From positions 806,001-870,000 of the forward strand of contig JARUPZ010000037.1 in assembly GCA_031213475.1 (NCBI GenBank): a stretch of 64,000 nucleotides of DNA, read 5' to 3'. Of the stretch, positions 1 to 64,000 are shown one piece after another. How positions within the stretch are numbered: position 1 is the first letter of the stretch; each line of letters opens with the position of its first letter. The position numbers and the translations under genes were made by a program. Origin of the DNA: Nereocystis luetkeana. Its lineage: Eukaryota; Sar; Phaeophyceae; Laminariales; Laminariaceae. A model generated the notes under the pieces. That model was not told the origin of the DNA, did no database searches, and saw only the letters and a program-made list of their open reading frames with translations.

Positions 1-560
1 TGAGCGGTACATAACCTCGAGTGCAAGCAGTACTCGCAGTGCAAACATGCGAAACACTGAATTCGGAAATTCTGCGAGTACTTCCAGTGTACATGTATTT
101 ATTCCCGAAATACTCCCTGCGGTATTATATGTAATCCAGTTGCCCCCCCCAAAGTGATTCGCTCCAACTCCCACTCGCGGGACCATCTGCGAATAAATGG
201 GGATGAAAATATAAAAAAGGTGCACGAATGGTCGAAGTCTCGTACCACATACAGTACGTCATACTCCTATTAAATATTAATAGTATACTGCGTAACTTGA
301 GAGTATTTTGGTGCTGTGAGTACTCGCAGTACTCGTGGTGCCAGCAATCGAAGTACTGCGAGCACTGCAAGTACTCGCTATACAGAACCCTGAAATACCT
401 GTAGTACAGGGATTTGTCCACAGTATACCCGAAATACTGCGGGTCCGGCAGTGTCCTCAGTACTCAGCGCCGAAATACTGCGAGTACTTTCGCACTACAC
501 GGACCTGAAATACTGCGAGCACATGAAGTACCTGCAGATTTTCTCTCGAAAATTCTTTAC
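1..560. repeat. degenerate tandem repeat, CGAAATACTGCGAGTACT-like unit
   Basis: Variants of a unit reading roughly CGAAATACTGCGAGTACT recur many times here, for example near 75, 305, 345, 425, 470 and 505. The spacing and sequence are degenerate. Related sequence lies at about 53920-54260, including a GGGAGCATCTG / CAGATGCTCCC segment found in both places in opposite orientation. The short ORFs in this stretch follow the repeat and are not credible genes. Confidence 0.6.
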
Positions 561-1035
561 TTTACTCCCCGGTACTGGGAGCATCTGTTTGCTGCCGTAC
601 CGCTGTGTATCAGTTCAGCAGTACAGGGTAGAAGTACTGCTGTATGCCGAACTTCTGGCCTGGCCATGGTTGGCTTGGAGCTGCAGCTTCACAAGCCTGC
701 AGCTTACTCGTTATAGTAGACCTACAACATTCATTCTACACCTAACATCGGGGTGGAGAGCCCTGTGCTGTTCTCCTGTGCTCTGACACATTATTTGCCG
801 GAGATCCGTACGAAGGGTTTTTTCTATTCCTGGTACCCTGCAGTATATATGACTATTAGTAGTACTCCTGTAGGGGAAGACCATCTACTGTGTAGTACTC
901 TAGTCGTGGGCGTGTACGAGCAGGGTAGGAGGTCGGCGAGTTGAAAGAAGAAGGTTAAGTGTGCATAAGGTCCAGCATTTATTTATAATAATTCCAGATC
1001 CATGAGCAAAACCAAACGGTGTATGTGCTCTCTTT

Positions 1036-1510
1036 TTGTTGGTAGAACCGAATTTGGCAGAAAAAAATGGAAACAGCCTGTCCTCCCTACTCGGTCGTCC
1101 GGTCATCACCTTGCCAGCAAGGACAACAACAGCAGTAGTGTCCGCCACGACTTGGTTGAATGAGTACGGCAGTATGGCAGACGGGTGCTCCCGTGGTCGG
1201 GGAGGGGCGGATTGCACGGAATGCCCGGGTTCAGCGGCACCAGCACAGTATCCAGTGCTCCGGCTGGGCGTCATTCTGCCGGAGTTGCCCCAAACCCATC
1301 CATGTCCCCAACGCGGCACGCCCTCACCCACCCTATCCGGGAACAAGCGGGTAGCGCCAACCGGACTTTCGTTTGTGGCGGATATGTCTCAGCACGAGCG
1401 CGAGACGCGTCCGCGCTGCGGCTTCGTCTCTGCCAAGAGCCAAATCCATGGTGTACGCAGGCGCTGTAGCCCGCCGAGCTACTGAGAGTAGCAGCAGCAT
1501 CAGCCACGTC
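1036..1510. other. GC-rich, coding-like stretch of unknown strand
   Basis: Base composition is higher in GC than the surroundings, and both strands are open for roughly 450 bases (plus 1036-1485, 149 codons; minus 1346-900, 148 codons). I recognise no domain on either strand. The plus frame contains several Cys residues in the middle but no clear zinc-finger spacing. No convincing splice pair could be placed. It may be an exon of an unrecognised gene or an old element. Confidence 0.25.
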
Positions 1511-2249
1511 CTCCAGCCCATGCGGTGTTCTACGTGTTTGTTTGTGGACTTGCGGACCATTTTCATTTCACCCATGTTTTATCACACCTTTTTCTGGCCA
1601 AAACCCGATATCGATTTTTGTATCAAGGGATTTGCGTGTACGAATATCGTGATATTGAATTCGGCGTAAAGAGTCGAAATATCACCCTCTCTTGAGTTTT
1701 ATACCTATCGGGTATAGCTCTAATCAGGCACTAAGGGCACGCGCATCCAGATTGACGGCATTGGAAATACATCGTGACACCTTTCTATAGACGCATCGCT
1801 CGGCATTGTTAGCGTGTGCACCCTCACCGTTGCAAATCCGCTTCGAAATTCCTCCCAGGATGTATGTTATCTTATCACACGGGTGATAGTCTATTAATAA
1901 TAGTATTAAACATACCTACGGCATTATTTGTTGGTTGTACTCCGGTATGTACTTGCGGTGAGCAAGCTTATCATATCATACATATTTATATACTTGGTTT
2001 ATGATACGTAGCCTCGTGGGGTGGGCAGAAGTGTCAAGAGCAATGAGCCTGAACATGAATGACTGGTGATACACGATAAAACCTCACGCCCCGCCTTGCC
2101 CAGTCCTTGCCCTGAGCTTATGTCCACCATCCTTTCCACCTGCTGTCCTCACATTTTTCAAGTTTGACATGGGGATTCGTTGCGGTACTGCATCGTTGGC
2201 GTCGTTGTACATGCTGCTGCCGCTGTATTGTATGCGATCTGGCGAAGGT

Positions 2250-2381
2250 GTCGATGATCGTAGGGCAGCGACCATTGGAGTTTATAAGGCGCAAGGCGTG
2301 GACGGCAGACCCGGTACGCTTCGGCAACGGCATCTCGGCGGTTACAAGCCTTTGCCTGGTCGACCAACCTAGCGCCGGAGG
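2250..2381 (+). CDS. candidate internal exon, probably 5' part of the WD40 gene
   Basis: One plus-strand frame reads smoothly through alternating hydrophobic and polar residues (for example RFGNGISAVTSLCLVDQ) and ends at a consensus donor, GGAG|GTGAGT, at 2382. That leaves the reading frame in phase 1. The pattern is compatible with a beta-propeller strand. The acceptor is not certain; several AG dinucleotides lie between 2160 and 2250. I infer from strand and position that it belongs to the WD40 gene ending at 7907. It could instead be an isolated gene fragment. Confidence 0.35.
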
Positions 2382-3963: not shown

Positions 3964-4072
3964 TATTACGGGGGGGCATAGTTAATAGGACCAAATATTG
4001 TTAGTAAAAATGGTTAAATATATAGGTTTTTATGTATACCATAGGTCCTGTTAACTATGGTCCCCCGTAATA
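3964..4072. mobile_element. TA-flanked MITE, copy 1
   Basis: A 109-bp element with terminal inverted repeats beginning TATTACGGGGG and ending CCCCCGTAATA. Inside the termini it carries the family signature CATAGTTAATAGGACC and its inverted counterpart GGTCCTGTTAACTATGG. It sits in or against the SINE copy at 4074-4447. It has no coding capacity, so it must have been moved in trans by a TA-targeting transposase (inference). Confidence 0.85.
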
Positions 4073-4073
4073 G

Positions 4074-7907: not shown

Positions 7908-8889
7908 TTAAGAAGGGCAAGGAGACTGCTTGACGCTGCTTCAAAGAACCTATGTCCTGGTTCGTATGCGGAGCAGTGTTGGCGTTATTTAGGCAGGCAC
8001 CAGGTATTTACTACAGTAAAACAAGTGTGAAATGGTCACGATAAGTACCAAATGGTCAGTGAGAAAGTGGGAAGATAGTGGACAAGAGGGATTTTATTGC
8101 CGCGTTTTTTTTTGTGCAGTTTTTCAGAGGGGGCTTTCATATAAACCTCCCTCCTGGCTCCTTCGTGGAGCGTAGACCTGTTTTTTTTTCTGTATTGCGC
8201 TTGTCATTCCACCGACAGAATCCCATGATCGTGGTTGCAAGTTTGGCGAGGTTGTTGAATGGGCGTTCCTTGTGATGCCGCGATATATTTATAGCGATTG
8301 CCGTGAGCGTCGAGGTCGTGAATGAAAACCATGGGATTCAGCCAAGAAGCGCGGCACATAGCATGTACCAGGTACTGCTGTAGTGCCAACTGAGGCATAA
8401 TGCAGTTGCCAATCGGGCAGCATTCTGAACGACGAGATGAAAGCTCAAGTTTGACTAATAATGTGGGAGGGGCCCGTGTATCGCGACCCAACACGGATGT
8501 CGACAAAACGGAAGCGAGCGGTGTACTCAAGCACGAAGAGAGCCACACACCTGGTACATGAGATAAAATACCAACGCATGCTATCAGCCCGAAAAAAAAT
8601 AAGCATAATATTTTACAGGATACCAGGTACTTGCTAAACAATAATGCCTCATGCCGACAGACTCATGGTCGATGACGACGGGCTTCACCACAAGTGCCAG
8701 CTACCGCGACGCAGTCGCCGCTCTCCAACGTAACTAAATGCAACATTCAACATTATTGGTGGTCAACGCCAACGAATAAGCATATCACTTCTGCACATCA
8801 CAACAAACACCTGTAGTGCAAACCGAGCAAATGTAATACCTGACAATGTGTACTGCAATGCAAGAGAGGGGTTTACAACAATACATGCC
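7908..8889. other. intergenic, no gene seen
   Basis: Non-coding sequence between the two convergent WD40 genes. It holds poly-T runs near 8105 and 8180 and several TA-bounded words (TACCAGGTA near 8368 and 8622). ORFs here are short and compositionally unlike exons. 3' untranslated regions of both genes probably extend into it. Confidence 0.6.
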
Positions 8890-8975: not shown

Positions 8976-9951
8976 TTTTTTTTAGTTTTGTCAGTACCAC
9001 AAAGCCAACACCAAAAAATAAACCCTGAAAATACGACGCTGGGGGCTGCATCAATGCCATACGTTTTGTATCGCGGTGTCCCGAAATGTAACACATCACA
9101 CTGCCCTGCCTACACATACGTGGTTTACCCAAAAACAAAACGCACGGGAGTAACTGGCTTGACACACAATACACAAGCCCCGTCACAAAATACACAAAAC
9201 ACCGACTCCCTGCGTTGTTGCAGTACGGCGGTCATGTTACAGACCATCTTTTATTTTTCTTGACCAAAAGTGCATGGCTGTCGCATCTCTGTTGGCCGTC
9301 GCATCAAGAACAACAAATAACCTCGTGACTTTACCCTTCCTGATGCAGTCGTCTATCAGGTGTGATTTATCTATTGCCCTGTAATAGGCGCATTCTGTCC
9401 ATTCCATCCCTTCGTCCGTGTATATACGCCCATACGCCGCACTTCCCACCCCTACTATCTTACCAGGTACTACACTATTTTACTGTACGACTATATACTA
9501 CCGTATCACTAGCAACGCGGGCAGTACACACACATCAAGGTGCCGAGTTCCTTGTACCCACTGTAACCAGCGGGACGCAGCACCCAAGTCACAACGTGCT
9601 TCAATCTCATTATTCGCTTGTACGAGAACCGAGTATCGTAGGGCAGCGATACATTAAAAAACACGGGGGGGAAACCCTCTAACTACTGGAACACACACCA
9701 AACATTACCACTGGTACATAGGTATAAAGCTGCGAAGGTCTTGAAAACTTACGAGGTGCACACACGGAAGGAACAGGGAAGAGGCGTTCCGCGCTGAACA
9801 AACGCATAAAAAGTAACAGAAATCATGAGGACAAAGGAAGCTTCGACACAGCGTCTGCCTCTCGGTCGAGGGTACGTACGTAGGTACGGCAAGCAGTCAG
9901 CCAACACCCGCCCCCTCTGCAGCTCGACGCCCCCCGACAAAACGCAATCGA
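8976..9951. other. intergenic, no gene seen
   Basis: AT- and CA-rich non-coding sequence up to the stop codon of the WDR44-like gene. It contains a TACCAGGTA at 9471-9479. The region immediately below 9952 is expected to hold that gene's 3' untranslated region; no definite poly(A) signal can be assigned. Confidence 0.5.
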
Positions 9952-13840: not shown

Positions 13841-13949
13841 TATTACGGGGCAACACAGTTAACAGGACCTATGGTATACATAAAAACCTATATGTTTAAC
13901 CATTTTTAATAACAATATTTGGTCCTGTTAACTATGGCCCCCCGTAATA
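13841..13949. mobile_element. TA-flanked MITE, copy 2
   Basis: A 109-bp copy with TATTACGGGG and CCCCCGTAATA ends. At 13889-13890 it preserves an uninterrupted AAAACCTATATG. This is the empty-site counterpart of the double CCTGGTA insertion seen in the copy at 61491. Confidence 0.85.
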
Positions 13950-14885: not shown

Positions 14886-15455
14886 GATGCACCACTACGG
14901 AGGATATGATGCCACCATGCACTATACAGACTGCCTGTGCGGTATGTATGTGTTGTGTTTGTGTTGTGTAAATGCCAACTCTACTACAAGCTACAGTACT
15001 GCTGGTGTAGTTGCGCTGTCATCAGCACCAGACCGAACCAACGAGGCAACTAACTCGTTACTTCCCTGAACGCTCTCGCTCGTTACTTCGTGTCTACTTT
15101 CTTTCTGCGAACGGAAACAATCCAAAACGAAGTTATATACGTATATCCAGAAAACAGCACACACACACCCAGCTCTCTCGCCAGCGTCGGAACACAACAA
15201 CAGTGGGCGCCCGGTGCACGTCAGTTTGGCGTCGAGGCGTAATGTCTTGTTTGTTTTCCGACCTTGATCTACGTAATAACTCTATTATAATTGTATATTA
15301 GGTACGATTAGAGATTGTTGTGGTCCCACTCACGTCTGGGTAGCATTTATTTTCTTATTGTTCGTGCCGATCTGAGCCTATTTTTCTCAACATAATGCGC
15401 GCGCGCAATGCCATGCTGTATACCAGGTACATACCAGGTATGCTGTATATCGCTG

Positions 15456-16978
15456 TGTGTGTTCTTCACATTAAACCGTTCTTCCTACCCGTCGACATCC
15501 AGCACAACAAGTGTCCGTGCCGATTCTTCAATCCTAGAAGAGATACAAATTCTGTGGTCACAAAGCTACGCCACAGAGATGCTACGTTGCCAGGTAAGCA
15601 CGGCAGTGGGCAATGCAATGCCATGTCATTATACTATTATAGATACGACAGTCACGACATACACATTCTATAAAATAGAGAAACGAAAGGAAATAATCAA
15701 GGAGAAAACAAAAACAAAGAAGACAAATCGAAAGAGAAAAAAAAAAAAAAATGAAAGAAAAATATAAGAAACAATCTGTCGTGCCCCCCCCCCCGGAGGC
15801 GAGGTGTCCAACACTTGAAAAAAAAAACAAAAAACACCACTTCTTGTAAACAGAGTAGAAACAGAGAACCAAGGAGAAAATAACAAAGGGAAAATAACTA
15901 AGGGAAAATAACAGGCAGATCAAAGCCCAGAGCACCCTCCAGGTGGAGGCAGCAGTTTGTGGTACGAGTAGTATATATCCAGGTTCTCCCTGATAATCCG
16001 ACTGGTACCTTGCTACCCAGACTGCCGTCTCCGCCCTGCGTTCGCCAACTATGCCCAGCCCCTTGGCGTCAGACAATACGAAACGAGCAGAGCAGGTTCG
16101 TCACCCAACCACGCCACACGACTCCTTCAATACGGCTTATCAATCACAAAAAAGGAAGAGAAAGAAATAAAATGCAAATCACGGAGAATCAGCGCAAGAA
16201 ACAAAAAAACAAAACGAAAACAGAAGACAAGGGAAGACCGCGTTCGAACCAGCTGCACCAGTTGGTGGCACTATTAATAGTAGCATGGTCATGTTCTACT
16301 TCCTAGTCGGCCTGGTGCCTTGACTACCCTGTCTGCCATCTCCTTCCTACTTTCGTCTACCCCCGTTTCCTTTCTACTCCTCCTGTTCCCCCCCCTCTCC
16401 GCATTCCCTTGGTCGGGTTTTCTGCCACTTCAGAATCTCCTGTTGCCCCCCCCCCCCTCCCATTCCCTTGGACACCATTCACGGCGGATGCGCGGCGCTG
16501 CCTACTCATCTCAGCCTCAGCCTCGTGCCACCTCACCATGAACCGTTCGGCTGCTTCAAGGATCCCCCGGTACCACTTTCCCGCCTTTTTGGCTGCAGTG
16601 GACCACAACGCGGTCTCAACTCCAAACACCAAGGGAGCAACTTCCGTTGACTCTTCGGTGGCTCGGAACTCCCTATTAGTAAGGTCTTCGACTATGCATC
16701 TATCTATGCCAAGTGTTACACTGTCCGCCTGGTCTCGGGTTCTCCCCACCAGCTATCGTCCCGAACATTACCCGACTGGGTAATCGCTCATTGCTTTGCC
16801 GTGCCACGCCCCCCGCAAAGAAGAGCCGCCGTTTACGAATGGCCGTTTCGATGCTCTCGCAACGTGTCATCTTGAGGGCCTTCGCGTACGAGAGGGTGGC
16901 ATGGTCAGTACGAAGTCGGCGCTGGAAGCCAATGTCTCGCAACAGGACTTGGTGGCGAGCCGTTCCGCGCCTCGGTAT
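15456..16978 (-). mobile_element. LINE 3' fragment with partial RT-C-terminal ORF
   Basis: On the minus strand, about 16978-16400 encodes the tail of a LINE polyprotein (RTDHATLSYAKALKMTRC, RRLFFAGGVARQSNERLPSR, WYRGILEAAERFMVRW). A long untranslated region follows and ends in the common GAAGAACACACAC terminus near 15456. The same segment occurs at 52455-53903. Compared with that copy, this one carries an extra TTAATA at 16276-16281, an extra TTAGTA at 16676-16681 and a CTAT duplication near 16700. The TTAGTA falls inside the ORF and disrupts it. 5' truncation is typical of target-primed reverse transcription. Confidence 0.8.
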
Positions 16979-19900
16979 ACCTGGTATCTATTAATTATAT
17001 ATAGGCATCGTGATGCCCAATTCATAACTTCATCGGAGTATTGCCTCTAATACCAACTTGTTGAAAAAATATACCAGGTATACCTCATCTACTCACAACT
17101 TTTTAAAGTTCCCTTCATGCAACAACGTAAAAAAAAATGTATCTCTCACATACTCCGAAATCACCTTTTGCAAGCTGCCTTCGTGCAACGTTCCAAGATC
17201 TTGTCCTTCGCGGCGTCATCTTCGAAACACGCATGTGTTCCTGCCCTCCTGCGCTTTGAACATCCGGCCCTTGTCATCTACCGCCGCTTCACCCGAAGCC
17301 CATCGAAATGAGAGTCTTTCGAGCTACCGAGAGGTTACGCAATCCTCTCTGTCGTCTTTGTACCCTACATACGCCGTGCTGTGGACTATACTACTGCAGA
17401 CAACAAAGCAGTACCTTCCTCTATTATTACCATCACCATTAATTTACACTCGGCCAATATCAATATATATCATGAGGGGTGCTGACGATTACCATCGTTA
17501 CTATCACTACTTTCTGCTGCTGCATCGCCGACTGGCATCTCAATCTCCCAAAACGATCACATTTTGAATACTTTACTGTATGAACAGGTGGCCACAATAT
17601 TTGCATGTGACATCTGCATGGAGACTCTCATGGATCAGCAGCGGCATCACTACTGCTCCGGTGTACCTGGCGCAGCAGTATAAATATCGGTGTTGACACC
17701 TACCTGACGACTTCAAGTCAGAGAAGAGCTGGAGAGCGAACGGGACCACTACTACTCTGTATTTGTAGATGTTATAAACCTGGTACATATTTCGAAGTAT
17801 AAAGCAAAAAAAATAAAGCAAATCAGACGCTGGGCGGTGAGTTTGTGCGAGTAGGCAGTTTTGTCAAACTCCTTTCCACTGCAATAGGTAGGTGCATAAA
17901 GCATGTTGCACTTGATAAGTATTCGGTGACATGCTGAAACCCATGAAATCGTACGAATCTTTATTTTCTTCAACGAACGTGTGTATGTATGCTCAATGCC
18001 TTGTCCACCTTGGGTATACTGTACTAAGGCAGCATCGACAGTAGCAGAGCGTACATTCTCTCTCTCGTACCGTCGATATGACACGATGGTGTAACGAAGT
18101 AACGCTCACAACGCGCTAGTAGCTGGGCGGTAGCTGGGTGATTGGTCGATGCTATCGAGCATACTTTGTTACCCATTTATCAGTCCCAGGAGGGGGGGGG
18201 TCAGCCGGACTGATGTCGACGAATGCAGAAACTAAGTGATAGATCGGGTGGCTACAGTAGGTATCGGTTCGACTAGCTCTAAGACTTACAGTCTAGCAGA
18301 GTTTTGTTTGTTTCTTGTTGAGTTGTTCAATGGGCGGGGGGGGGCGGGGCGACAGCGGCAGTACTGAAACTTGGCACCGCTATTATTGACGAGGGTAGGA
18401 AGGAGACGGCGAAGGGGGTGTGGCTAGGTGCCCGAATCGGTTTTTTAGGTCTGACGGGCACCCATGTTACTATCACCGCCTGGAGTACGATGTTCTCTTT
18501 CCCCCCCTCCTCTCTTCCTCCTCGCTTGTTTTGCCTTGTCTCTCCCTTAGTTTCCTTTCCCCTCCCCGCCGTCCCTATGCAGGTATATCTTCCTCTCCTT
18601 CGTGTTGCTTCGTCCGTGTAATTTCGCCCCTCGTCCTTCCCTCTACTGTAGTCGCGCCTGCGGCTTGCTGCGCACCAGGTACTCGGGTAAATATACATGT
18701 ACAGTACATACACGTACGATATTGTTGGCCCTGCACTCTCAGCGCTCCTCAGTGTTTCGTAGACGTATTTTTTTGCGTTGTTCGTGCTAGCGCGAGATGA
18801 GATTCACCTCACGGGACGAAACTGCCCCATTGTGATCCCCGCCCCCGACTGTGTCGGGGGCGGCCTCGGGCGTGCATTCGCCGTGCCCTGGCTGCCGGCT
18901 GGCCGGGTGTGAATACGTCAGCTGTGAGTCCGACCAGTGAGTGGTCGATACTTGATTTATCACTGTCTCGTGGCCAAAGAATTTGGTTGACGGCCTACCT
19001 TTGCCCCGTCAGGCCTAATTTTGGTCCGTCAATAGCCGCTACGTATAATACGTAGTACCTGGTAAATACTTTTGTTTTCACGTTTATAAAATGTGGCGGG
19101 TCGGGTCGGGTCAGGAGGTAACCTACGCTACGCTACTGTCTCGGCTACAGTCAAGGGATACACATAACTTACGATGATTGTGCCCAGTGCTGAACACCCC
19201 GTGCCTTTGCCGTGATTGCGAACACATCCGAAAATATACTTCCACGATCGATCGCGGAAACGAAGGTCATGCGACATAGGGTTTGTGCCACCAACCAGGT
19301 TGGCGGTACAAGCACTATTAACTTGTTTGTGTATTATTAGTGTTGACAGATAGTATTGTTTCAACAAAAAGCTGACGTCCTCCCACCCTCCACCGTTGTT
19401 TCCCCCCTCCTTCACTTTGCTGACTCTTCACCATCCACTCTTTACCAGCGGGCCGGCGGGTGGGTGGGATTGTTAACGGGGTGCATGTACGTAATAATCA
19501 TCGGCGAAAGTTCTCCTTGTATGCCTTTTGTCATCTGTCTTGGACTTTTCACTTCGGGGTCTTATTTGATATGGGGGTGTTCACGTGACGTCGAAGCCAT
19601 CGCAATCTGCGTGATTCGACTGGAACATCATGTTTGGTTATATATTTCGAATCTAAGAATACCCATGAGACTCGCGAGGACTCAATCATTTCAGCCCCTC
19701 GTACCCTTGAGGCTCACTCACGAGGATTCTTCTGTCGTTTCAGTAAATTGACGTACTCTTGGACTCGGTAAATCAAAATAACCGGTGTTCGCGAGTGAGT
19801 CCCGATGACTGGGCAATGGTACTCTGCCGACCTTTTTTGTTTGTGCAGTAATAGTATGTAGTTATCGCTGCAAATTTTCACTCCTACCCAAAATGCATCT

Positions 19901-33931: not shown

Positions 33932-34040
33932 TATTACGGGGGACCATAGTTAATAGGACCAAATATTGTTAGCAAAAATAGCGAAATATGGAGGTTTTTG
34001 TGTGCACCGTAGGTCCTATTAACTATGGCCCCCCGTAATA
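33932..34040. mobile_element. TA-flanked MITE, copy 3
   Basis: TATTACGGGGGACCATAGTT at the left and AACTATGGCCCCCCGTAATA at the right, 109 bp; same family as 3964-4072. Confidence 0.85.
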
Positions 34041-34140: not shown

Positions 34141-34205
34141 TACATACCAGGTACAGCAGTATACCAGGTACCTGGTACAACCTGGTACCTGGTACCAGGT
34201 ATACA
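34141..34205. repeat. nested array of TA-bounded words
   Basis: About 60 bases consist almost wholly of ATACCAGGTA, TACAGCAGTA, TACCAGGTACCTGGTA and TACCTGGTACCAGGTA sharing their TA ends. This is what repeated insertion at the TA of an earlier word would produce. Confidence 0.7.
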
Positions 34206-34600: not shown

Positions 34601-34689
34601 TGGCACACCATTGACAGATCTGCACGACCTGTACCTGGTAGGAGACAGCGCTCTTCTGCGCCTATTTGTTGTGAGTGATCTATATATAT

Positions 34690-35033: not shown

Positions 35034-35111
35034 ACCAGGTAGGGAATACCAGTAGTTTTTTGGCACATATTTTCCAGCGATAATCTGATAATCTGTAAGA
35101 GCTACATGAGC

Positions 35112-35220
35112 TATTACGGGGGGGCATAGTTAACAGGACCAAATATTGTTAGTAAAAATGGTTAAACATATAGGTTTTTATGTGTGACATAGGTCCTGTT
35201 AATTATGGTCCCCCGTAATA
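35112..35220. mobile_element. TA-flanked MITE, copy 4
   Basis: TATTACGGGGGGGCATAGTT to AATTATGGTCCCCCGTAATA, 109 bp. Confidence 0.85.
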
Positions 35221-35395: not shown

Positions 35396-37484
35396 ACTCA
35401 TGATTATCTACAAATTGAAATTTCAGTATTCCATTTAAAAAAAAACAACGTTTGAGACCAAATCTTCATAGCAGAGCTCATGGATTATAAATAATATACC
35501 AGGTATATATATACTCAGGTATATATACTCAGTATGTATTACGTATACGAGTACGGTTTTTCGCCCCGGCGACTCGCCGTCACCCCTTGAACGTTCCTTG
35601 CATTGGCCGTTCGGGCATCAGGCACAGAAACCTTGCACGTATAAACGCAAATTGCGTTATTGTCGAATCATGAATGGACCCATTTTTTCTTGTTGCGATG
35701 ATCGAGCTGTCCTACGCGTACTATTCGCCGTGTCCCGTGCTTGCCCTCGACAATCGTGTAGGGGGGGGGTTGTTCAGGAGGTGTAAGGCTGGACTCACCC
35801 TCAAGGGGCAGCACCTTCCAGGACTACAACTATATATCAGCAGTCACTCAATCTGACATGCCCATCCTATCTATATCCCATCTATATCCTATCCCATTGC
35901 CTATTCATAGGTTCGCGCTAGAGTTGCGGTCAACGGCGGCGGTGCGCCAGACACAACCCATTTGCATTCCCGATTCGCGGGCCTCGTAATACGGAGAACC
36001 CTGATACGGAGAACCCTGAAGGTGGTGGGTGCGGAGACAGATCGCTAGTGTGTTAATGTGCTAGTGTCGGGGACAATTGCTACAGGCATGATGCACTTAT
36101 AGAAAGCTGTCGCCTGGGTAGAGGCGACGCTCGCACAGAGAGTACCAGTGAGCTGGATTCGGCAGTGAGGATGGAGTGAGAGAGAGACCGATCACTGACG
36201 AGCGGGGATGGGTTTGGTTTGAACCCTTCACCTCACGTTCATTTTTAGATCGCAAAGAGCAGAGAGGCGCTTTGACGAGGGCTACTATTTTCTTGCATAT
36301 ACCAGATACTCGATAACATAGCATGCGTGTGAGGCACTGAGCGAATCGAGTGGGGCTGGAGACTGAAGGGCGCCCGGAGAAGGACTAGCGCCGCGCCCGC
36401 GCACGAGAGCAAAGGCGCTCCGTAAAGCCCCCGGCGAGTTTCTATCAATAGGCAGCTGCTGTTGACCATGGAAACGCCCGATTGGATGGTTGACATCTGC
36501 GGCAGTAGTCGGGCGATAAAGAAATGCCATGGGGATGCCATGGGGATGCCATGGTCGACTCGTCGCGACCGAAGGACCGATTGCTGTTGTTGGAGGTGCA
36601 CGTGTGCTCTACTTTGGCAAATAGTGAAGGGGGCGGGGGGTGTGACAGCGTGTACTCGTCGTGGTTTGGTTTCCAGCCTTCGTTCACTGCGTTTGTCGGA
36701 CGTCATTCAAGCCATTCAGCCTGTACTATTTCTCGCTGTCGTTCTTGTGTGCATACAGCACTTGCACATACTGTAGAGGGCCGTACAGTCCGGTCATGAT
36801 GGCATTCAAAACTGACGACACTCCCGACAGCAACGCCAGACGGCAACGATAGTCTCAAATAAATAGGGCGCAGCAGCAGCACAGACGTGGGTGTTAATTG
36901 TTTTCGAGCGAAGCCCTTGTGCTACGAATAGCTATGTCGCACGCGATGTCGCACGCTCGTAACTTTATGCAGTACAGCCAGTGACGCTCATGTACCGATA
37001 TCATACTACTGTCGGTATACCAACACACTTTTTTCTCTTTTCTGTGTTGTGTGTAACAGGTTGTGGGATTGTCTACTCCTATCATTCTAGACCCCGACTA
37101 AGACATAATATAGTGGAATGCGTTTTGATTTGGTTTCCTATCAATCCTTCGACTATATATGTATGTACTATTAATATCAATAATAGACTAACGCACTGTT
37201 TGTGCCTTTTCGTGACCGCGGGCTAGAATATGACAATAATATTACCAGGTATGGCACAAATGTATCACGAGCTGGGTCCAAGAAAATGCGTAAAATTACA
37301 CGTTCAGGCAAAATAAAGGGCGGAACATGTTGATTTGTTCAAAACTGAAGATATCCACCTGCCCGCATGGACAAGGGGAACATGTCGAGGAAGAGATTTT
37401 TGGCGGGCGAGTTGTAGTTCGCGAGACATGGTAATTGTTCGTATTAATTAGGGAGGTGTCATTTTCAAGGGATTTTAGATTCCT
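35396..37484. other. non-coding or unassigned region
   Basis: No convincing gene. ORFs at 36706-36245 (minus, 153 codons) and 36462-36776 (plus) overlap in a GC-rich patch that contains a triplicated GGGGATGCCAT at 36530-36555; neither has a recognisable domain. Words such as TACCAGGTA (35496, 37243) are present. Confidence 0.4.
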
Positions 37485-37591
37485 ATTACGGGGGGCCATA
37501 GTTAATAGGACCTATGGTATGCATAAAAACCTATGCATCTAACCCTTTTTTCCAACAATATTTGGTCCTATTAACTATGGTCCCCCGTAAT
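37485..37591. mobile_element. TA-flanked MITE, copy 5
   Basis: ATTACGGGGGGCCATAGTT to AACTATGGTCCCCCGTAAT. The right flank reads TG instead of TA, so one target dinucleotide has mutated. Confidence 0.85.
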
Positions 37592-47334: not shown

Positions 47335-47585
47335 TTGTGTGCGTGTGTTCTTCACATTAAACCGTTCTTTCTACCCGTCGACATCCAGCACAACCAGTGT
47401 CCGTGCCGATTCTTCAACCCTAGAAGAGATACAAGTTACCGGTATGTGGTCACAAAGCTACGCCAGAGAGATACTACGTTGCCACGTACCCTGGTATGCC
47501 GTAAGCACAGCAGTGGGCAATGCGATGTCATGTCATCATACTAGATACGACAGGCACGACATACACATTCTATGAAAGAAACGAA
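47335..47585 (-). mobile_element. LINE 3'-end fragment
   Basis: Reverse orientation of the same 3' terminus (GTTCTTCACATTAAACCG). It contains extra ACCGGTA at about 47437 and a TACCCTGGTA-containing insert at about 47488 compared with the copies at 15456 and 52455. Confidence 0.75.
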
Positions 47586-48128: not shown

Positions 48129-48137
48129 TACCTGGTA
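48129..48137. repeat. clean TA-bounded micro-insertion (CCTGG)
   Basis: Reads CATGCTACCTGGTAGTTAC; the paralogous LINE copy at 56795-56804 reads CATGCTAGTTAC. The difference is exactly CCTGG plus a second TA. Confidence 0.9.
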
Positions 48138-48825: not shown

Positions 48826-51800
48826 GTATAATAGTCTCGTTTTGCTTAAAAATGAGGCAATAGAGTATTAGCAGTATAGATTCTAGACGTCTAAACTATT
48901 ACTTCGTACCTGGTATATTAAAAACAGAGTACTACGTGCGTGTACTCGTAAATAGAGCCCGTACTCACTATTGATAGAGGAGCTGTCTACCACCAGGTAC
49001 GAGGTAGACTCGTTTTAGTATACGAGTACATGAGGCAATAGCCTAGACTACTCTTACTCGTATACTCGTAAAATATACCAGGTATCATACCAGGTGACAG
49101 GTTCTTGGGACGAGTATGTCCCAGGGTACAGAGTACTGTTACTGTAACCCTGACCAAGGGTTGGCCGCATTCCAGTGCAGTACGACGATGCACCTGATAC
49201 CAGGTATACCAGATACCATACAATGTACCTGGTACATCGCTATTCAAGTATTTCAATTATTAATAGACGAAAGGACTCGTTAAATGAATGCCTGAAGTTT
49301 ATTGATGCTGATTTCTGAATAAGGCAGCAGGGCGCACGGACTATCAATACCAACTCTGTACCATAAATCATTATCGTCACTCGTACTCTCTGTGTCCTAT
49401 TAATAGTACTTCAACCTTGTAAATACCAATACTATTAATATAACTCATTCGCGTATACGATACTCGTAAGGTACTGTACTTCCCGGGCGTGCGTCTTTCT
49501 ATTGTACTTTCTTGTATAATACGGTGGGGCGAATATCATACCTGTATGTACGAGTCCCGGTTGACAGTTGATCTTGGTGCTGGTAGTGATATGCACCGGC
49601 TAGATCTAGACTCCTTGTGCATTTTCTCAACGGTATGGTATGTCTGTGCTACGTACTCGCACAAAATTATAGATTTTAAGGGTACGTTTGGAAGCGTATA
49701 ACGGTACCCGGGGCATGTTTTATCGACGTGCCCAAGTTACCGAATTGTCGGGTCCCGGTATTGAAGTCGTACCGAACTTACCGAAGTGTCAGGTAACGGT
49801 GTCGAGTTCGTGCCGAACCTCATGAGAGTGTTCGGTAGAGTATTGCGGCCTTAACCATCACTCCGGTAAAGTTCGCTAGGGTATTGCGTCCGTACCGAAC
49901 ACGCCGGTAAGGGTCGGGTACCGGTATTTATCCAGCAAATACCCCCGGTTTATTTTGGTGCGTATCCTGCCCAACATACCCTTGGAATTACTGTAGTAAA
50001 GTATTGATTACAAATTAACGATGTGAAAACACAAAAACAGCAATCTGGCACGTAGTAGGTACTCCCTGGTACGATGTTGGACTCCTTAGTCTATTAATAG
50101 AAGATTAATTGTTACGAACAGCAAAAGCGTTTGTCAGACGAGAAGCAGCATATTTTGGGTTTTAGATTTTCATCACTCGGGATGGTATATATACTGCTGT
50201 TGGGATGTGGGTTATGTACACAGCTGTACCCCCGGCGATAACATTTCGTTTGGGATTTTACTGTAGGTTATTCACTACCCCCTTGTTGTATACTATAGGG
50301 ATGTGATAGCATGGGGGGGTGATGGCAGTGGTTACGAACGACATGACGGCATTCAATGTTCAACAACAGAATATAATGGAGATGAGGCAACACCAACTAC
50401 TCCTACAGTACGCCCCACTGTCGACCATCCTTCCAAGGCACTAACGCGCACAAGTTGACGACAGTTTAACATCCTGCTGCTGATAATAGAGTTCCTAGCG
50501 AAACCTACACACTACGGTATCTTCTTACGTAGGCGTCCAAAACGGATAATTTGCGGCGCGGCGTCGGTTTTCAACTCGTGCTTGACATCGCGACCTTCGT
50601 TCGGTATTCTGAGAGCCAGATTTGTCAAGGACGCCATATGCAAACACGAGTTGAGTGGAACATTGATCTGGTATGGGATTATTTGCACAACACACCACAA
50701 CGGCGGCGATAGACTATACTCACAGGAACCGGCCCGTCTGTTGCTAGTGAGGCAATGTCTCAGGGTGTGTGGTATACACCGCGCTCCGGTTGACGTCCCT
50801 TGGGTAGCGGTGTAGGATTTGAATGGCCACCCGGTTGGTTACCTGCTGTGGGTGTGTGGTATGCGAGGTAGAGTGTGCTACACATTGCTGTCATATACGG
50901 TACGAGTACAGAATACGAGGAGACAATAGGGGCATTAGAGGTACCGGTACTTCACAAGACGTGTACGGCTATATAGCGACCTCAAATGGCTTGAAACTAC
51001 TTTTAATAGGAGCTCAATACAAGCTGAGTCGTCTAATATGGGTACCGTACCTATAAAGGGCGGGCGATCGCCTTTTACATATGACTCCTATGATACACGG
51101 ATAGAAGTTCCAGGGCATCCTGTGGCACTGTCCCTCCCCTCGCCCCCCAAGCGGCCCGTTATTTTCGCATCTGCTACTACACCTCTCCGTGCAATGTATT
51201 AATATAGTTATTCAGACAAGACCTTCGGCAACCTGAAGAGAAGCCAGCCGCAACGACGACACGCCATGCGTCTCCAGCCCCCCCCCTTTCCTCCCCTTTA
51301 AATCCATCCTCCCTCCAAGGCGAAACCCACTACCAGGTACCTCAGATAATCATACACCCCTCTCCCCGTTCAAAGTCATGTCTCTTCCTGAGCCGCCTTT
51401 GCCGCATGGATTATTTGTCTATCAAGTATGGCAATCGGGGAAATTGGTATGGCCCGCGTGTGGTTCAGGTGTTCTGAGAAGGAATTAAAATAATTGCAGT
51501 ATATAGTCTTTATTTTCATCACGTACGTACCGCGTTCAGGCCACTCGGGCGAGTGGCTCTCTATCTCATTCAAAATTGGGCTCGAAAACAATTTGTTGGT
51601 GCAACGTTAACAAACCCATGGCAGTGCTTATCGTGGATCAAAAGTAGCATAAAACCTCTTGACTGCAAATACATACCCTAGTACAGTAGGAGACTTACTC
51701 GGCCGAGTGACTGCGCGGTTGAAAAACAATTACCAGGTATCTTGGCTGACCCTCCCCCCCTCCGTACGTAGCACCAGTCTAGGCCGGCCGGCCGAAACTG

Positions 51801-52454: not shown

Positions 52455-53903
52455 CGGTGTGTGTTTGTGTTCTTCACATTAAACCGTTCTTCCTACCCGT
52501 CGACATCCAGCACAACCAGTGTCCGTGCCGATTCTTCAATCCTAGAAGAGATCCAAGTTCTGTCGTCACAAAGCTACGCCACAGAGATACTACGTTGCCA
52601 GGTAAGCACAGCAGTGGGCAATGCAATGCCATGTCATTATACTATTATTAATACTAGCTAAATACGACAGTCACGACATACACATTCTATGAAATAGGGA
52701 AACGAAAGGAAACAATCAAAGAGAAAACAAAAACAAAGAAGACAATTCGAAAGAGAAAAAGAAAAAAAAATGAAAGAAAACTAGAAGAAAAAATCTGTCT
52801 TGCCCCCCCCCCCGCAGGCGAGGTGGCCAACACTTGAAAAAAACAAGCTGGAAAAAAAATAAAACAACAACAAAAACACCACTGCTTGTAAACAGAGTAA
52901 GGCAAAGAACCAAAAAATAACAAAAGGGAAAATAACAGGCAGACCAAAGCCCAAAGCACCCTCCAGGTGGCGGCAGCAGTTCGTGGCACGAGTAGTATAG
53001 CCAGGTTCTCCCTGATAATCCGCCTGGTACCTTGCTACCCAAACTGCCGTCTCCGCCCTGCGTTCGTCAACTATGCCCAGCCCCTTGGCGTCAGACAATA
53101 CGAAACGAGCAGAGCAGGTTCGTCATCCAACCACGCCACACGACTCCTTCAATACGGCTTATCAATCACAAAAAAGGAAGAGAAAGAAATAAAATGAAAA
53201 TCACGTAGAATCAGCGCAAGAAAGAAAAAAACGAAACAAAAACAGAAGACAAGGGAAGACCACGTTCGAACCAGCTGCACCAGTTGGTGGAACTAGTTGT
53301 ATGGTCATGTTCTACTTCATAGTCGGCCTGGTGCCTTGCTACCCTGTCTGCCATCTCCTTCCTACTTTCGTCTACCGCAGTTTCCCTTCTACTCCTCCTG
53401 TTTCCCCCCCTCTCCGCATTCCCTTGGTCGGGTTTTCTGCCACTTCTCCTGTTGCCCCCCCACCCCCCCCATTCCCTTGGAACACCATCCACGGCGGATG
53501 CGCGGCGCTGCCTACTCATCTCAGCCTCAGCCTCGTGCCACCTCACCATGAACCGTTCGGCTGCTTCAAGGATCCCCCGGTACCACTTCCCCGCCTTTTT
53601 GGCTGCAGTGGACCACAACGCGGTCTCAACTCCAAACACCAAGGGAGCAACTTCCGTTGACCCTTCGGTGGCTCGGAACTTCCTAAGGTCTTCGACTATG
53701 CATCTATGCCAAGTGTTACACTGTCCGCCTGGTCTCGGGTTCTCCCCACCAGCTATCGTCCCGAACATTACCCGACTGGGTAATCGCTCATTGCTTTGCC
53801 GTGCCACGCCCCCCGCAAAGAAGAGCCGCCGTTTACGACTGGTCGTTTCGATGCTCTCGCAACGTGTCATCTTGAGGGCCTTCGCGTACGAGAGGGTGGC
53901 ATG
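52455..53903 (-). mobile_element. LINE 3' fragment with RT-C-terminal ORF
   Basis: The same structure as 15456-16978, with the ORF region intact from about 53903 (HATLSYAKALKMTRC) through CIVEDLRKFRATEGSTE to WHEAEAEMSRQRR. It lacks the TTAATA and TTAGTA insertions of the other copy, so it serves as the empty-site reference. It does carry its own TATTAATACTAGCTA insert at about 52645-52660, where the other copy reads TATAG. The 3' end is GAAGAACACAAACACAC near 52455. Confidence 0.8.
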
Positions 53904-57058: not shown

Positions 57059-57167
57059 TATTACGGGGGGCCATAGTTAACAGGACCAAATATTGTTAGT
57101 AAAAATGGTTAAACATATAGGTTTTTATGTGTACCATAGGTCCTGTTAACTATGGTCCCCCGTAATA
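57059..57167. mobile_element. TA-flanked MITE, copy 6
   Basis: TATTACGGGGGGCCATAGTT to AACTATGGTCCCCCGTAATA, 109 bp. Confidence 0.85.
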
Positions 57168-57700: not shown

Positions 57701-57724
57701 ACTACGGGATATATATATATATAT

Positions 57725-58070
57725 ATATTTATTTATTTTCTCATCCCATTCATTATCTTCGCACATCTTCTTCTCTCTCTCCTTCCAACTCGTAACTCAG
57801 ATCCGGGGTCACATAGCAGGCTCTTCTCCCCCCTTCCCGCTACGGTACGTGCCTTCATTTTTATCGCGAGAAGATTTCAGCCTTTTCTTCCCTCGTCGAC
57901 TCGCATCGAATTGTGCCTACCCACGCTGCAAGGCGCTCTCAACAATTGAATCCTTTTTTATTTTTGCAAATAAAGTCAAAGTCCGACCCACCTGGGGCTC
58001 GAACCCAGGACTCAAACAAGTAGAATTCGAGGTTAACCACTTGAACCACCGGGGCGACCGGCTACCATAT
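57725..58070 (-). mobile_element. tRNA-derived SINE, best full-length copy
   Basis: The minus-strand head GGTCGCCCCGGTGGTTCAAG has an A box (GGTTCAAGTGGTTAACC) and a B box (GGGTTCGAGCCCC) and ends GGTGGGTCGGAC. The body is as in the other copies, and the tail is A-rich, then (TA)n. About 345 bp. Read as a tRNA it does not give a closed anticodon arm, so I call it a SINE head, not a tRNA gene. Confidence 0.85.
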
Positions 58071-58193
58071 TTCCCGCCGTGGTGTTTCTTTAATTGTAAT
58101 TTGATACCTGGTATCTGTTTGTTACCTGGTACCAGGTACCTGGTAGTATAGTTGTTGTCCTGTCAAATACCAGGTGATACTTTATTTACCTGG

Positions 58194-58302
58194 TATTACG
58201 GGGGGCCATAGTTAATAGGACCTGTGGTATACATAAAAACCTGTATATTTACCCATTTCTACCAACAGTATTTGGTCCTATTAACTATGGTCCCCCGTAA
58301 TA
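58194..58302. mobile_element. TA-flanked MITE, copy 7
   Basis: TATTACGGGGGGCCATAGTT to AACTATGGTCCCCCGTAATA. It is inserted directly behind a TACCTGG word (58187-58194), whose TA is shared. Confidence 0.85.
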
Positions 58303-60978: not shown

Positions 60979-61207
60979 ACTAATTCAAATCGATTCGATC
61001 GATTCGATTCGATAATTCTCCAGAAGTAATAAGTGTTTTGGGACTTCATAGTTGTCAATTTTATTGAATCGGATTGAATCGAAGCTCCCTTGCCTCAAAA
61101 AATGAAAACGCCTACTTGGTGATCTTGTTTTTGACCAATCAGAGGCATTTTTTTTTTTCAAAAATCGATTCGATTCAACATATTTGTTCGTTAAAACGGA
61201 CTCTAAA

Positions 61208-61700
61208 GTGGTAGCCCCGGTGGCTCAGTATTACCCTCGAATGCTGATATTAATATTAATAGGTTTTGATTGATCCCGTGACGTCAAATCCCACCCTGGT
61301 GATAATTTCCATGATTGAAAGAGCTAAAAGGAAACAACTGCTGATACTGTAGCGCCTACTGTAGCGTGGGTATGATAGGCGCCATTCGACGCGAATCAAC
61401 AAGGGAAGAATGGGCTGAAGTCTCCTCGCGATAAAAATGCCAATGAAGGCACGACCCGTAGTGGAGAGGGAGGAGGAGAAAGAAAGAGCCTATTACGGGG
61501 GACCATAGTTAATAGGACCTATGGTCTATACAAAAACCTACCTGGTACCTGGTATATATTTACCTATTTTACGCACAATATTTGGTCCTATTATCTATAG
61601 CCCCCCCGTAATAGCCTGCTACGTGACCCCGGATCTGAGTTACGACTACTGCTGTACTATTAATATTGACCGGAGAGAGAGGGAAGAAGAGGGGCGAATA
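61208..61700 (+). mobile_element. tRNA-derived SINE interrupted by a MITE
   Basis: The head GTAGCCCCGGTGGCTCAGT, with B-box-like GTCAAATCCCACC, is followed by the family body (GTAGCGTGGGTATGATAGGCG, TTCGACGCGAATCAACAAGG, GATAAAAATGCCAATGAAGG). A MITE splits the body at AGAGCCT. The body resumes AGCCTGCTACGTGACCCCGG. The head carries TATTAATATTAATA at about 61248-61261, and the tail carries TACTGCTGTACTATTAATA. Confidence 0.8.
61491..61613. mobile_element. TA-flanked MITE, copy 8, with a double micro-insertion
   Basis: Longer than its relatives because 14 bp (CCTGGTA twice) follow the TA at 61539-61540. It is inserted in a SINE whose target is known from other copies. AGCCT stands on both sides if the element is taken as ATTACGG...CCGTAAT, so this copy has a likely target duplication. 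Confidence 0.85.
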
Positions 61701-64000
61701 TACTAATGGGAAGAAGACAAAACAAATGGGGAACTGTCAACTGACTTCGACAACATTGAATCAACTCCAGCGTTCAGGGCCGTTCTTGCCGTTTTTTTTT
61801 GTTCCGGGAATATATATCCCAAATTGTGGCATTCTTAAGTGTTCGAAGACAACCTTTTTCGATCAAAACAGAAGAAAAAACTTTAACCGTTGATGAAAAA
61901 ACTCTTTCACTTTCTCGGGAAAACCTAACTGGCGGTAGAGGATCGGGCAGCCGCACCGCACCGCAGGCAGGCGCACAGCACCGCTTGAGCCGTGCTACAA
62001 ACTAGTTACGAGCGCACAACGCTGGCCAAGGCCATTCTTGAGGCCGTTCACTATTCACAGAGCAGACGCGTACCGACGTTTCATATGAATATCATAGCCG
62101 AGTAACTCAACTTGCGGAGGACAGGCAGTCACTGATAATATTACGAGTACTGCGTTGGGTGTCGTGGGCTGGGGTGTGGCGCCAAGAGCTGCGACGTATG
62201 GTCCGTGCAGGTTTCCCCCGTCCAGGTTTCCCCGAGCACCAAGGTCTATTCTTCTCCTCGTACAGGAGTATGATATGTAGTGATAGGATGGCCGACCACA
62301 ATTTGCAAAAATACCTGTACTCGTATAAAATGTACTCCGTTCGTTCTTCCGCGAAGGTGGTCCTTGGCTTTTACTTCGTTGGCGATTTTTGTTTTGCCTC
62401 TGTGTTTCTTCAAACCCTTGAAATAACAGTGCTACATCAATGGGGTGGGAGGAGTACTTTTCGCAACACTATTTAGAGCACGGATTTGAATTGATCTCGG
62501 AATTCCCCAGACACGATGTTCTTCCGATTCAAAGAAAACCAAAAAGACGAAGAGGCAGAAAAACTTCCCCAGAGCGCATGGAAAAATCGATTATCCAATG
62601 GGAAAACTAAAGATAGGCACCCGACAAGGACGAAAGTAGAGGGCTCCAAACTATCCCTTTCGACTATCTATCCACAGACCTAACCTTTCTGATATTTTTT
62701 AATGAATGGAGGTCAATCGACCTATTCTCGATTGTGTGATAATTAGCTGTTTATCGCCCTTGACAAACTGTGACTTAATTGATTTTAGGTTTTCATGGGT
62801 GAACAAAAGAAAATGCCATGAACATTTTTCTTCGCTCAGCCTTGGTGATCACGACTGACTGCTGTTGTCGTTTTATCCCGCAATTCGTCGTATTTCGAAA
62901 GTTCTTTGCCGAAAACGGTTTGGATGAATTATCTTGCACAGACTTAAAAATACTGTTAAAATAATTATTAATAGTGATGGTTTCACAACACGAGGCACGT
63001 TGCTTGAAAATGCACACTAGAGGCAAGGGAATTCCTAGGTTGCCAAGACATCCTTGTCCCACCTTATCTTGCTCTAATTCGCTTTCGTATCGCAGGGGTG
63101 CGTGGCGCCTATGACATCGCATAGTGCAGGGTGGGCTACGAACGCAAATTTCGACGAAATCCTCGATCTCGAGTTTTTTTTTTTTTTCATTTTTATGTAC
63201 CTGGTACAAGAACACATACTGCTGTATACCGGTATACCGGAAGGGCATACGGGCATACCGGCATACTGCCAATAATACCAGGCATATATCTACAGCAACA
63301 AACTACATGATACATCATACATATACCAGTATACGACTTTTGAGCAAATAATTATTTTCGTTCACTTTCCACAGGTTCCCCGGTTTCGAACCCAGGGTTG
63401 TGCTGGAAATGCAAGAAGTAAGTGTTGAAATGAAAACGAGCTTCACGTTACTGCTGTTGCGGACGGCGCATTGTTCGATTACTATTATACTACTGCTGTA
63501 TGATTGTCTGCCGTCCTTTCCTCCTGGCCGCTGGTGCCTCGTGTTTGGTCTGCCTTCTGGCTCCTCGCCGGTGGCCCATGCCATCCAATCCCATTCGATC
63601 CCATTCCATCCTATCTCATCCGATCCCATCCGTTTCCCGTCCGATCCCATCCCGTCCCGTCCCGTCCCATCTCTTATCGTCTTACGAATCGAACACATCT
63701 TGTGATACACCAGCGTACCAGGTACCTGGTATACGGACCTTCATGTTCCCTTTCCTTTATACGAACATACCTGGTACACTTTAAACAACAGTAATTAGTA
63801 ATAGAAATACAGCAGCTCTCCTCCCGAATATAATTCGCACCTTCTGTTACTTTCTTCGTACGAATTATTCATATTATACGTGATTTAAGGTGCCGGTGTA
63901 CGAGTATGATGAAAAAGTGAATGTTGCCAGTATATACCGGTGCTACTACTGTACGTACAATACGCACCACCAGGTATTTTTTTGTTTCGCGTCTATTCTT
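61701..64000. other. non-coding, no gene supported
   Basis: AT-rich with scattered TA-bounded words. A stretch around 63120-63175 (ACGAACGC, TTTCGACGAAATCCTCGATC) faintly resembles the 8890 repeat. A pentanucleotide-like (ATCCC/CCCGT)n tract lies at 63585-63672. ORFs over that tract are artefacts. Confidence 0.45.
63585..63672. repeat. degenerate ATCCC/CCCGT microsatellite
   Basis: Repeats of TCGATCCCATCC and CCCGTCCCGT produce Pro/Ser/Ile/His-rich ORFs on both strands that should not be taken as genes. Confidence 0.8.

What the first reader, a model, noticed from the sequence alone, without database searches (positions are those of the whole stretch)
1..64000. Genome-saturating TA-bounded micro-insertions, a candidate undescribed insertion or footprint system
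The non-coding DNA is filled with a small vocabulary of words that start and end in TA: TACCTGGTA/TACCAGGTA, TATTAATA (often CTATTAATAG), TACTGCTGTA/TACAGCAGTA, TACGAGTA/TACTCGTA, TACCGGTA. They occur dozens of times, in both orientations, and share TA ends when tandem. I see essentially none in the recognised exons. Paralogous repeat copies show that several are real insertions of core plus TA at a pre-existing TA. Known microsatellite slippage does not make dispersed, palindromic, TA-delimited words. Excision footprints of Tc1/mariner-type elements do have the form TA-(few nt)-TA, so I infer past mass excision of several TA-targeting element families.
Basis: partly seen in the sequence, partly recalled or inferred. 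Interest (0 to 1): 0.92.

Follow-up and report, generated by a model that had tools for sequence, protein, structure and literature searches.

The report
Transposon excision scars across algal genome
The non-coding DNA of this genome, probably a brown alga's, is peppered with tiny fixed words that look like scars left when TA-targeting jumping genes cut themselves out, so a kind of mutation usually seen at a few sites can be read genome-wide.

Summary
TACCAGGTA/TACCTGGTA occurs 72 times in the window (about 1 expected) and 182,395 times in the 465-Mb assembly, against 1,744 for the reversed word. They are real insertions of core plus TA at a pre-existing TA: 16 of 33 alignable copies have a paralogue lacking exactly 7 bp, against 0 of 28 control-word sites. 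Excision footprints of TA-targeting cut-and-paste transposons explain them best. TATTAATA shares the target motif (TAC|TA|GTA) of an abundant 105-bp MITE with ends TTACGGGG; in one array the same TA is empty 13 times, MITE-filled once and TATTAATA-filled twice. TACAGTA/TACTGTA is the published Sleeping Beauty footprint, and one pogo-type element here has ends CAGTGGGG. The commonest word has its own palindromic target preference but no intact source was found: of the first 100 of 1,071 matches at one MITE-internal TA, 99 read as micro-insertions and none as an element. TACGAGTA and TACAGCAGTA are enriched but not shown to be insertions (0 of 12, 0 of 1). The kind of scar is known; the scale and the missing main source are not explained by what I found in print.

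The parts
1..64000 (.). 72 dispersed TACCWGGTA words (proposed footprints of an unidentified CC-ended, TA-targeting element), with 35 TATTAATA, 46 TACWGTA and 35 TATSATA
   Evidence: counts and positions; shuffles
48129..48137 (.). TACCTGGTA with an empty paralogous site: 7-bp insertion at a TA
   Evidence: 2 empty alignments, 0 filled
61539..61554 (.). tandem TACCTGGTACCTGGTA inside a MITE copy, at a TA where other MITE copies in the window lack it
16272..16279 (.). TATTAATA with an empty paralogous site near 53,295 (6-bp insertion)
61371..61377 (.). TATSATA word with 8 empty alignments and no filled one
18253..18259 (.). TACAGTA-type word with one empty paralogue (5-bp insertion)
47437..47444 (.). 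TACCGGTA word with 4 empty alignments
47487..47496 (.). one-nucleotide variant of the CCWGG word (CCAGGG/CCCTGG core), with one empty paralogue
34145..34201 (.). cluster of five TACCWGGTA words, some in tandem, with one TACAGCAGTA-type word
58105..58145 (.). cluster of four TACCWGGTA words, three sharing TA ends in tandem
63716..63731 (.). tandem TACCAGGTACCTGGTA
3964..4072 (.). MITE copy TA|TTACGGGG...CCCCGTAA|TA, proposed source of TATTAATA
13841..13949 (.). MITE copy of the same family
33932..34040 (.). MITE copy of the same family
35112..35220 (.). MITE copy of the same family
37483..37591 (.). MITE copy of the same family
57059..57167 (.). MITE copy of the same family
58194..58302 (.). 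MITE copy of the same family
61490..61614 (.). MITE copy of the same family, carrying the tandem CCWGG footprint

Best explanation
The words are excision footprints of several families of cut-and-paste DNA transposons that insert at TA. Each family duplicates the TA on insertion. On excision the transposase cuts a few nucleotides inside the element, and end joining leaves TA-core-TA, where the core is the element's own first few bases. Shown: core plus TA is inserted at a pre-existing TA (CCWGG, TTAA, CAG, and single cases of TCA and CCGG); the words have target preferences outside the word that differ between words; TATTAATA shares the target motif of the 105-bp TTACGGGG MITE, and the same TA with it in one array; one element with ends CAG exists for TACWGTA. 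Inferred: that TTAA is made from the ends TT/TTA of that MITE; that CCWGG comes from an element with ends CCAGG or CCA whose overhangs meet with one central A-A mismatch, so either strand can be fixed (TACCAGGTA or TACCTGGTA); that this element is now rare or gone, the scars having built up as few copies jumped many times. A CCWGG footprint puts a new TA seven bases from the old one and so supplies the preferred A/T and A at -7 and -6, which would explain the tandem copies.
For: Insertion polarity: 16 of 33 CCWGG words inside paralogue alignments (181 words in 335 kb) have an exact 7-bp empty copy; in 14 of the 16 empty alignments outnumber filled ones (up to 18 to 3), in 2 they tie; controls 0 of 28; TTAA 5 of 19, CAG 4 of 26, TCA 1 of 14, CCGG 1 of 10, CCAGGG/CCCTGG 3 of 4. 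Target preference in the 264 kb not chosen for words: CCWGG has A/T at -7 in 181 of 210 half-sites against 0.54 for all TAs (p 1.7e-23), A at -6 in 95 and A at -1 in 99; TATTAATA has C at -1 in 79 of 152 and A at -2 in 92, but no -7 preference; MITE ends have C at -1 in 33 of 54, A at -2 in 27 and T at -3 in 32. Array in L017: of 16 matched GCTGCGCAGC-type sites 13 are empty, 1 holds the MITE (about 8398-8506) and 2 hold TATTAATA (8790, 8852). L041:3552-6163 has 26-bp perfect inverted ends, TA|CAGTGGGGGG..., round a DDE_1 frame; TACAGTA/TACTGTA is the consensus Sleeping Beauty footprint (PMC4378557, passages). Genome scale 182,395 against 1,744. Spectrum at one MITE-internal TA: of the first 100 of 1,071 matches, 99 read on like the MITE: 68 single CCWGG, 9 doubles, the rest CCGG, CCAG/CCTG, CCAGGG/CCCTGG, CCATGG, CCTAGG, CCTTGG, CCCGG/CCGGG, CCTCG and point mutants, like an excision-repair spectrum. 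The centre of CCNGG is A/T in 181 and G/C in 6, 2.2 expected.
Against: No intact element with CC ends was found: none recurs in 288 kb apart from the words themselves, no good inverted pair among 140 half-words, none in the 99 at the MITE site (only 35 letters of each were seen). A 5-nt core is longer than the 3-nt overhang of Sleeping Beauty and mariner (PMC7827188, passages), the 0-4 bp of the pogo-type Passer (PMC9976928, passages) and the 1-4 bp seen for Osmar5/Stowaway (PMC1925063, passages); the minor products CCATGG and CCTAGG suit a 3-nt overhang better than a 5-nt one. In rice most excisions leave deletions or filler, 8 of 94 being perfect (PMC4423477, passages), unlike the uniform words here. 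At the MITE site CCTGG outnumbers CCAGG 48 to 20, which equal segregation does not predict; copying of MITEs that already carry a footprint could cause it and would make the 1,071 sites not all independent. One TATTAATA (L027:8147) has 62 filled alignments to 1 empty. The CAG element's own flanks (G at -1 on both sides, one element) do not match the C at -1 favoured round CAG words. Among non-microsatellite indels TA duplication (63 of 211) is followed by GT (41) and AC (29). TACGAGTA and TACAGCAGTA lack any empty site. No strain or species comparison could be made.
Confidence: 0.8

Rival explanations
1. The CCWGG word is itself the inserted unit: some enzyme joins a short palindromic oligonucleotide into TA sites, with no larger element ever present at most of them.
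For: No intact CC-ended element found; one dominant product; symmetrical target preference at -7/-6/-1.
Against: TATTAATA and TACWGTA in the same genome have candidate source elements; the minor-product spectrum at the MITE site looks like end joining of a break left by excision; I recall no enzyme that does this.
Confidence: 0.1
2. Most words spread by hitch-hiking: a few were captured inside MITEs or other repeats and copied with them.
For: Some words lie in repeats; 1,071 matches share one MITE site and the first 100 show a 48:20 bias; filled-only sites exist (11 of 33 CCWGG, 12 of 19 TTAA).
Against: Flanks of the words are unlike one another beyond the target motif; only 33 of 181 CCWGG words lie in any paralogue alignment within the 335 kb held, and about half of those have empty copies. 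A whole-genome repeat comparison was not possible and would raise the 33.
Confidence: 0.07
3. The words are functional sites, such as binding sites of a regulator or a replication factor, kept by selection.
For: They are short, near-palindromic and rare in long ORFs.
Against: They are empty in many paralogues, inserted with a TA duplication, differ in target motif, and are surrounded by decaying one-mutation neighbours (175 seen against 76 expected, leaving out the reverse complement).
Confidence: 0.02
4. Part of the vocabulary (TACGAGTA, TACAGCAGTA, some TATSATA) is not footprint at all but composition or decayed microsatellite. This could be true alongside the best explanation.
For: 0 of 12 and 0 of 1 empty copies; one-mutant neighbours of TACAGCAGTA are raised, 137 against 41 expected, as in a CAG-rich background; weak target motif for CGAG.
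Against: 27 and 17 in the window against at most 7 and 2 in 200 shuffles; CAGCAG shares the C at -1 with CAG words.
Confidence: 0.4

Closest known systems
Sleeping Beauty / Tc1-mariner excision footprints (TACAGTA, TACTGTA)
   Same: TA-core-TA form, core equal to the element's first bases, one central position resolved either way; TACWGTA is the very word (PMC4378557 and PMC7827188, passages)
   Different: In the passages seen, footprints are followed in engineered tissue or plasmids; here one word alone is present 182,395 times in a natural genome, and its core is 5 nt
Stowaway MITE footprints in grasses and Osmar5
   Different: 1-4 bp and several distinct forms at one intron, against one dominant 5-nt core here
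pogo/Tigger-type elements with DDE_1 transposase, including those of Ectocarpus
   Same: L041 element: TA ends, inverted ends CAGTGGGG, transposase 88% identical to an Ectocarpus protein
   Different: Only one two-ended copy and one single end (L039) were seen; the link to the TACWGTA words rests on the CAG ends
Ectocarpus Mariner-Tc1 non-autonomous elements (PMC12477816, passages)
   Same: Abundant TA-type MITEs in a brown alga
   Different: 'Footprint' occurs 0 times in that paper's text; its supplements were not seen

Membership tests
Excision footprint of a TA-targeting (Tc1/mariner/pogo) transposon | word is an insertion of core plus TA at a pre-existing TA | tested here: met
   CCWGG 16 of 33, TTAA 5 of 19, CAG 4 of 26, TCA 1 of 14, controls 0 of 28; not met for CGAG (0 of 12) and CAGCAG (0 of 1)
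Excision footprint of a TA-targeting (Tc1/mariner/pogo) transposon | core equals the terminal bases of an element in the genome | tested here: inconclusive
   CAG: ends CAGTGGGG in L041; TTAA: ends TT...AA of the MITE; CCWGG: no element found
Excision footprint of a TA-targeting (Tc1/mariner/pogo) transposon | word and element share target preference | tested here: inconclusive
   met for TATTAATA and MITE; the one CAG element does not match the CAG words; CCWGG has a clear preference but no element to compare
Excision footprint of a TA-targeting (Tc1/mariner/pogo) transposon | a transposase of the group is encoded | tested here: met
   DDE_1 (PF03184) 28 matches, all over the cut-off, 10 loci fetched; DDE_3 (PF13358) 0 of 30 candidates; PF01359 did not complete
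Excision footprint of a TA-targeting (Tc1/mariner/pogo) transposon | overhang of 2-4 nt | tested here: inconclusive
   TTAA and CAG fit; the CCWGG core is 5 nt, while minor products CCATGG and CCTAGG would fit 3 nt
MITE of a TA-targeting superfamily (TTACGGGG family) | terminal inverted repeats, TA duplication, short, many copies | tested here: met
   25 two-ended copies in 264 kb, 14 of them 105 bp long, 22 with TA on both sides
Ciliate TA-bounded internal eliminated sequences | eliminated segments of tens of bases or more | tested here: not met
   inserts scored here are 5-8 bp; the family's features are recalled
Heptanucleotide tandem repeat | head-to-tail array | tested here: not met
   138 words, only 12 adjacent pairs in 264 kb; bacterial records found by the triple (so arrays by construction) hold 13 lone words of 150 in 288 kb

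The most novel reading that the evidence does not exclude
A TA-targeting transposon lineage with CC-ended inverted repeats and possibly a 5-nt cut jumped very many times at low copy number in this brown-alga lineage, leaving some 180,000 near-uniform footprints while intact copies all but vanished. Its footprint recreates its own target motif seven bases away, so scars seed new insertions and build tandem arrays.
Probability: 0.45. Interest if true: 0.85.

Novelty: new variant of a known kind. Interest (0 to 1): 0.72.

Why it matters
Transposon excision is hard to count because the element is gone. Here each family seems to leave a recognisable word, so excision history, target preference, end-joining outcomes and relative ages could be read from one assembly, with up to about 10^5 events for one word (fewer if some were copied with repeats). 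At 7 bp each, the excess CCWGG words alone would have added about 1.3 Mb. It would show that footprint mutation can mark non-coding DNA more visibly than the elements themselves, and it offers a natural end-joining assay at a fixed MITE site.

Tried and rejected
Looked for the CCWGG source by inverted-end search in 288 kb, recurrent extensions, boundary analysis, half-words, and round DDE_1 genes: only the CAG element L041 and a long-ended TACAAGG element (L041:339-3499) appeared as candidate TA-ended elements there; L037 also has TA-ended inverted ends starting GCACCGGGG and L038 lies in a longer inverted repeat. Ten of the 28 DDE_1 matches were fetched, five of them with wider flanks. In one search the middle piece of two joined stretches was turned the wrong way; one search repeated it in the right orientation and again found no inverted ends. 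One listed hit at the MITE site (C3:9990097, L086) looked like a longer insert but is not a MITE. Tc1-type DDE_3: none. The triple word in bacterial genomes (40 places) is a tandem repeat, with few lone words; viral contigs 0. The first paralogue BLAST gave no rows and was redone with other gap costs. The tandem count (20) includes loci L001-L008 chosen by a tandem pattern; the unselected count is 12 against 2.5 expected. In one search one CCTAGG was parsed as CC; corrected by eye. Not obtained because the genome search was busy: genome-wide TATTAATA count, empty-site count GGTTAAATATATAGG, PF01359. Seven paper searches, seen as listings, showed no report of footprint words in a brown alga; passages of seven papers were read.


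Full report
What was checked. The window is G000:C37:806001-870000 of an unnamed 465-Mb assembly in 1,987 contigs. The host is probably a brown alga: a transposase from the same assembly is 88% identical, over 87% of the query, to a protein of Ectocarpus sp. CCAP 1310/34. The species is not known to me.

The words are real and far above chance. TACCWGGTA stands 72 times in the window against about 1 expected, TATTAATA 35, TACGAGTA/TACTCGTA 27, TACAGCAGTA/TACTGCTGTA 17, TACCGGTA 6; TACWGTA (46) and TATSATA (35) are raised too. In 200 kb from 15 other contigs TACCWGGTA is 66 against 1.65. In the whole assembly it is 182,395 against 1,744 for the word read backwards. The window (1.1 per kb) is denser than the genome (0.39 per kb).

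They are insertions. In 335 kb of held sequence 300 indels of 4-60 bp between repeat copies were collected without regard to sequence: 84 are bounded by TA, and TACCWGGTA is the commonest type with 18. TA is the dinucleotide most often duplicated, 63 of 211 non-microsatellite indels; GT follows with 41, AC with 29, AT has 17. Asked the other way, of 33 CCWGG words within paralogue alignments 16 have a copy that lacks exactly 7 bases, 11 are filled only, 6 other; TTAA 5 of 19, CAG 4 of 26, TCA 1 of 14, CCGG 1 of 10, CCAGGG/CCCTGG 3 of 4, CGAG 0 of 12, CAGCAG 0 of 1; control words 0 of 28 covered sites. In 14 of the 16 CCWGG cases empty alignments outnumber filled ones (18 to 3, 12 to 3, 11 to 0 at the best covered), so there the insertion looks derived. 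One TATTAATA goes the other way, 1 empty to 62 filled. These counts are alignments, not proven independent copies.

They sit at preferred targets. Outside CCWGG words the bases at -7 (A/T in 181 of 210 half-sites), -6 (A, 95 of 210) and -1 (A, 99 of 210) are biased about the TA (both sides pooled). Of 129 isolated words, 25 sit on pre-insertion sites with all four signature bases, against 487 of 18,795 TAs. TATTAATA has a different motif, TAC|TA|GTA. The words therefore come from more than one targeting enzyme (inference).

Two candidate sources. First, a MITE, commonly 105 bp, with ends TTACGGGG occurs 25 times with both ends in 264 kb, 22 with TA on both sides, and is the only TA-bounded repeat with more than four distinct insertion sites, apart from the words and pieces of the MITE itself. 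Its outside bases are C at -1 (33 of 54), A at -2 (27), T at -3 (32), as for TATTAATA (79, 92 and 73 of 152). In locus L017, of 16 matched GCTGCGCAGC-type sites 13 are empty, one holds the MITE and two TATTAATA. TT and AA are the first and last two bases of the MITE, so TATTAATA is what remains if it leaves. Second, L041:3552-6163 is a 2.6-kb element with 26-bp perfect inverted ends, TA|CAGTGGGGGG, round a DDE_1 frame. TACAGTA and TACTGTA are the published consensus footprints of Sleeping Beauty (PMC4378557, passages), which leaves 3-nt 3' overhangs (PMC7827188, passages). The flanks of this one element do not match those of the CAG words, so the link rests on the ends.

The main word has no known source. 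No TA|CC element recurs in 288 kb apart from the words and half-words do not pair up. The MITE carries an internal TA that is often hit. A pattern for that site followed by TACC has 1,071 matches, 0 for the reversed pattern. Of the first 100 listed (contigs C1 to C4, 35 letters each), one is not a MITE and the other 99 read as micro-insertions: 48 CCTGG, 20 CCAGG, 9 doubles, 5 CCAGGG/CCCTGG, 4 CCAG/CCTG, 3 CCGG, 2 CCATGG, 2 CCCGG/CCGGG, 1 each CCTAGG, CCTTGG, CCTCG, and 3 mutants. This is what repair of one kind of staggered break would give. Self-pairing of CCAGG overhangs with a central A-A mismatch would give CCAGG and CCTGG, and a slip by one CCAGGG or CCCTGG, both seen, the slip variant with the same -6/-7 preference. 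CCATGG and CCTAGG fit a shorter overhang better, so the cut length is open. The 48:20 bias is unexplained.

Tandem copies. In the unselected 264 kb there are 12 adjacent pairs among 138 words, against 2.5 if TAs were hit at random. A footprint puts a TA seven bases from the next, which supplies the preferred T and A at -7 and -6. Self-seeding is an inference.

Age. One-mutation neighbours of TACCWGGTA number 175 against 76 expected once its own reverse complement is left out, roughly 6% mean divergence: an accumulation, not one recent burst. This is a crude estimate.

Verdict. The inference of excision footprints is supported for CCWGG (by insertion, target and spectrum), TTAA (by source MITE) and CAG (by ends and literature). 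It is not shown for CGAG and CAGCAG. The kind is known; I saw no report of this scale or of the missing main source in my paper searches (listings).

Noticed in passing
window 31717-31984, 34682-35036, 57709-58059, partial 61351-61479; L017 about 9000-9600: A dispersed repeat with a tRNA-like B-box (GCTCGAACCC), perhaps a tRNA-derived SINE; ARAGORN and Rfam call nothing in the window.
   Followed up: partly
window 15454-16903 and 52462-53903; 48195-48845 (-): Paralogous remnants that look like a non-LTR retroelement; the 48195 protein has 542 relatives, some with a reverse transcriptase domain (PF00078), the listed ones unnamed.
   Followed up: partly
L041:339-3499: A TA-ended element with 1.2-kb inverted ends starting CAAGGCGCTTCG, 93% alike.
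   Followed up: no
L040:6716-6840: Tandem TACCCGGGTA words near a DDE_1 gene; CCCGGG is 5 against 0.2 expected in 335 kb.
   Followed up: no
L017 about 8700-8740 and L041:3524-3553: Longer TA-bounded inserts with CC...GG ends (TACCTGCGTCTAGGTA; a 30-bp TACCAGG...CCAGGTA), perhaps footprints with filler DNA.
   Followed up: no
MITE internal site, first 100 of 1,071 matches: CCTGG outnumbers CCAGG 48 to 20 relative to the MITE strand.
   Followed up: no
bacterial records L046-L085: The same heptamer occurs as short tandem arrays in metagenome-assembled bacterial genomes of several groups.
   Followed up: partly
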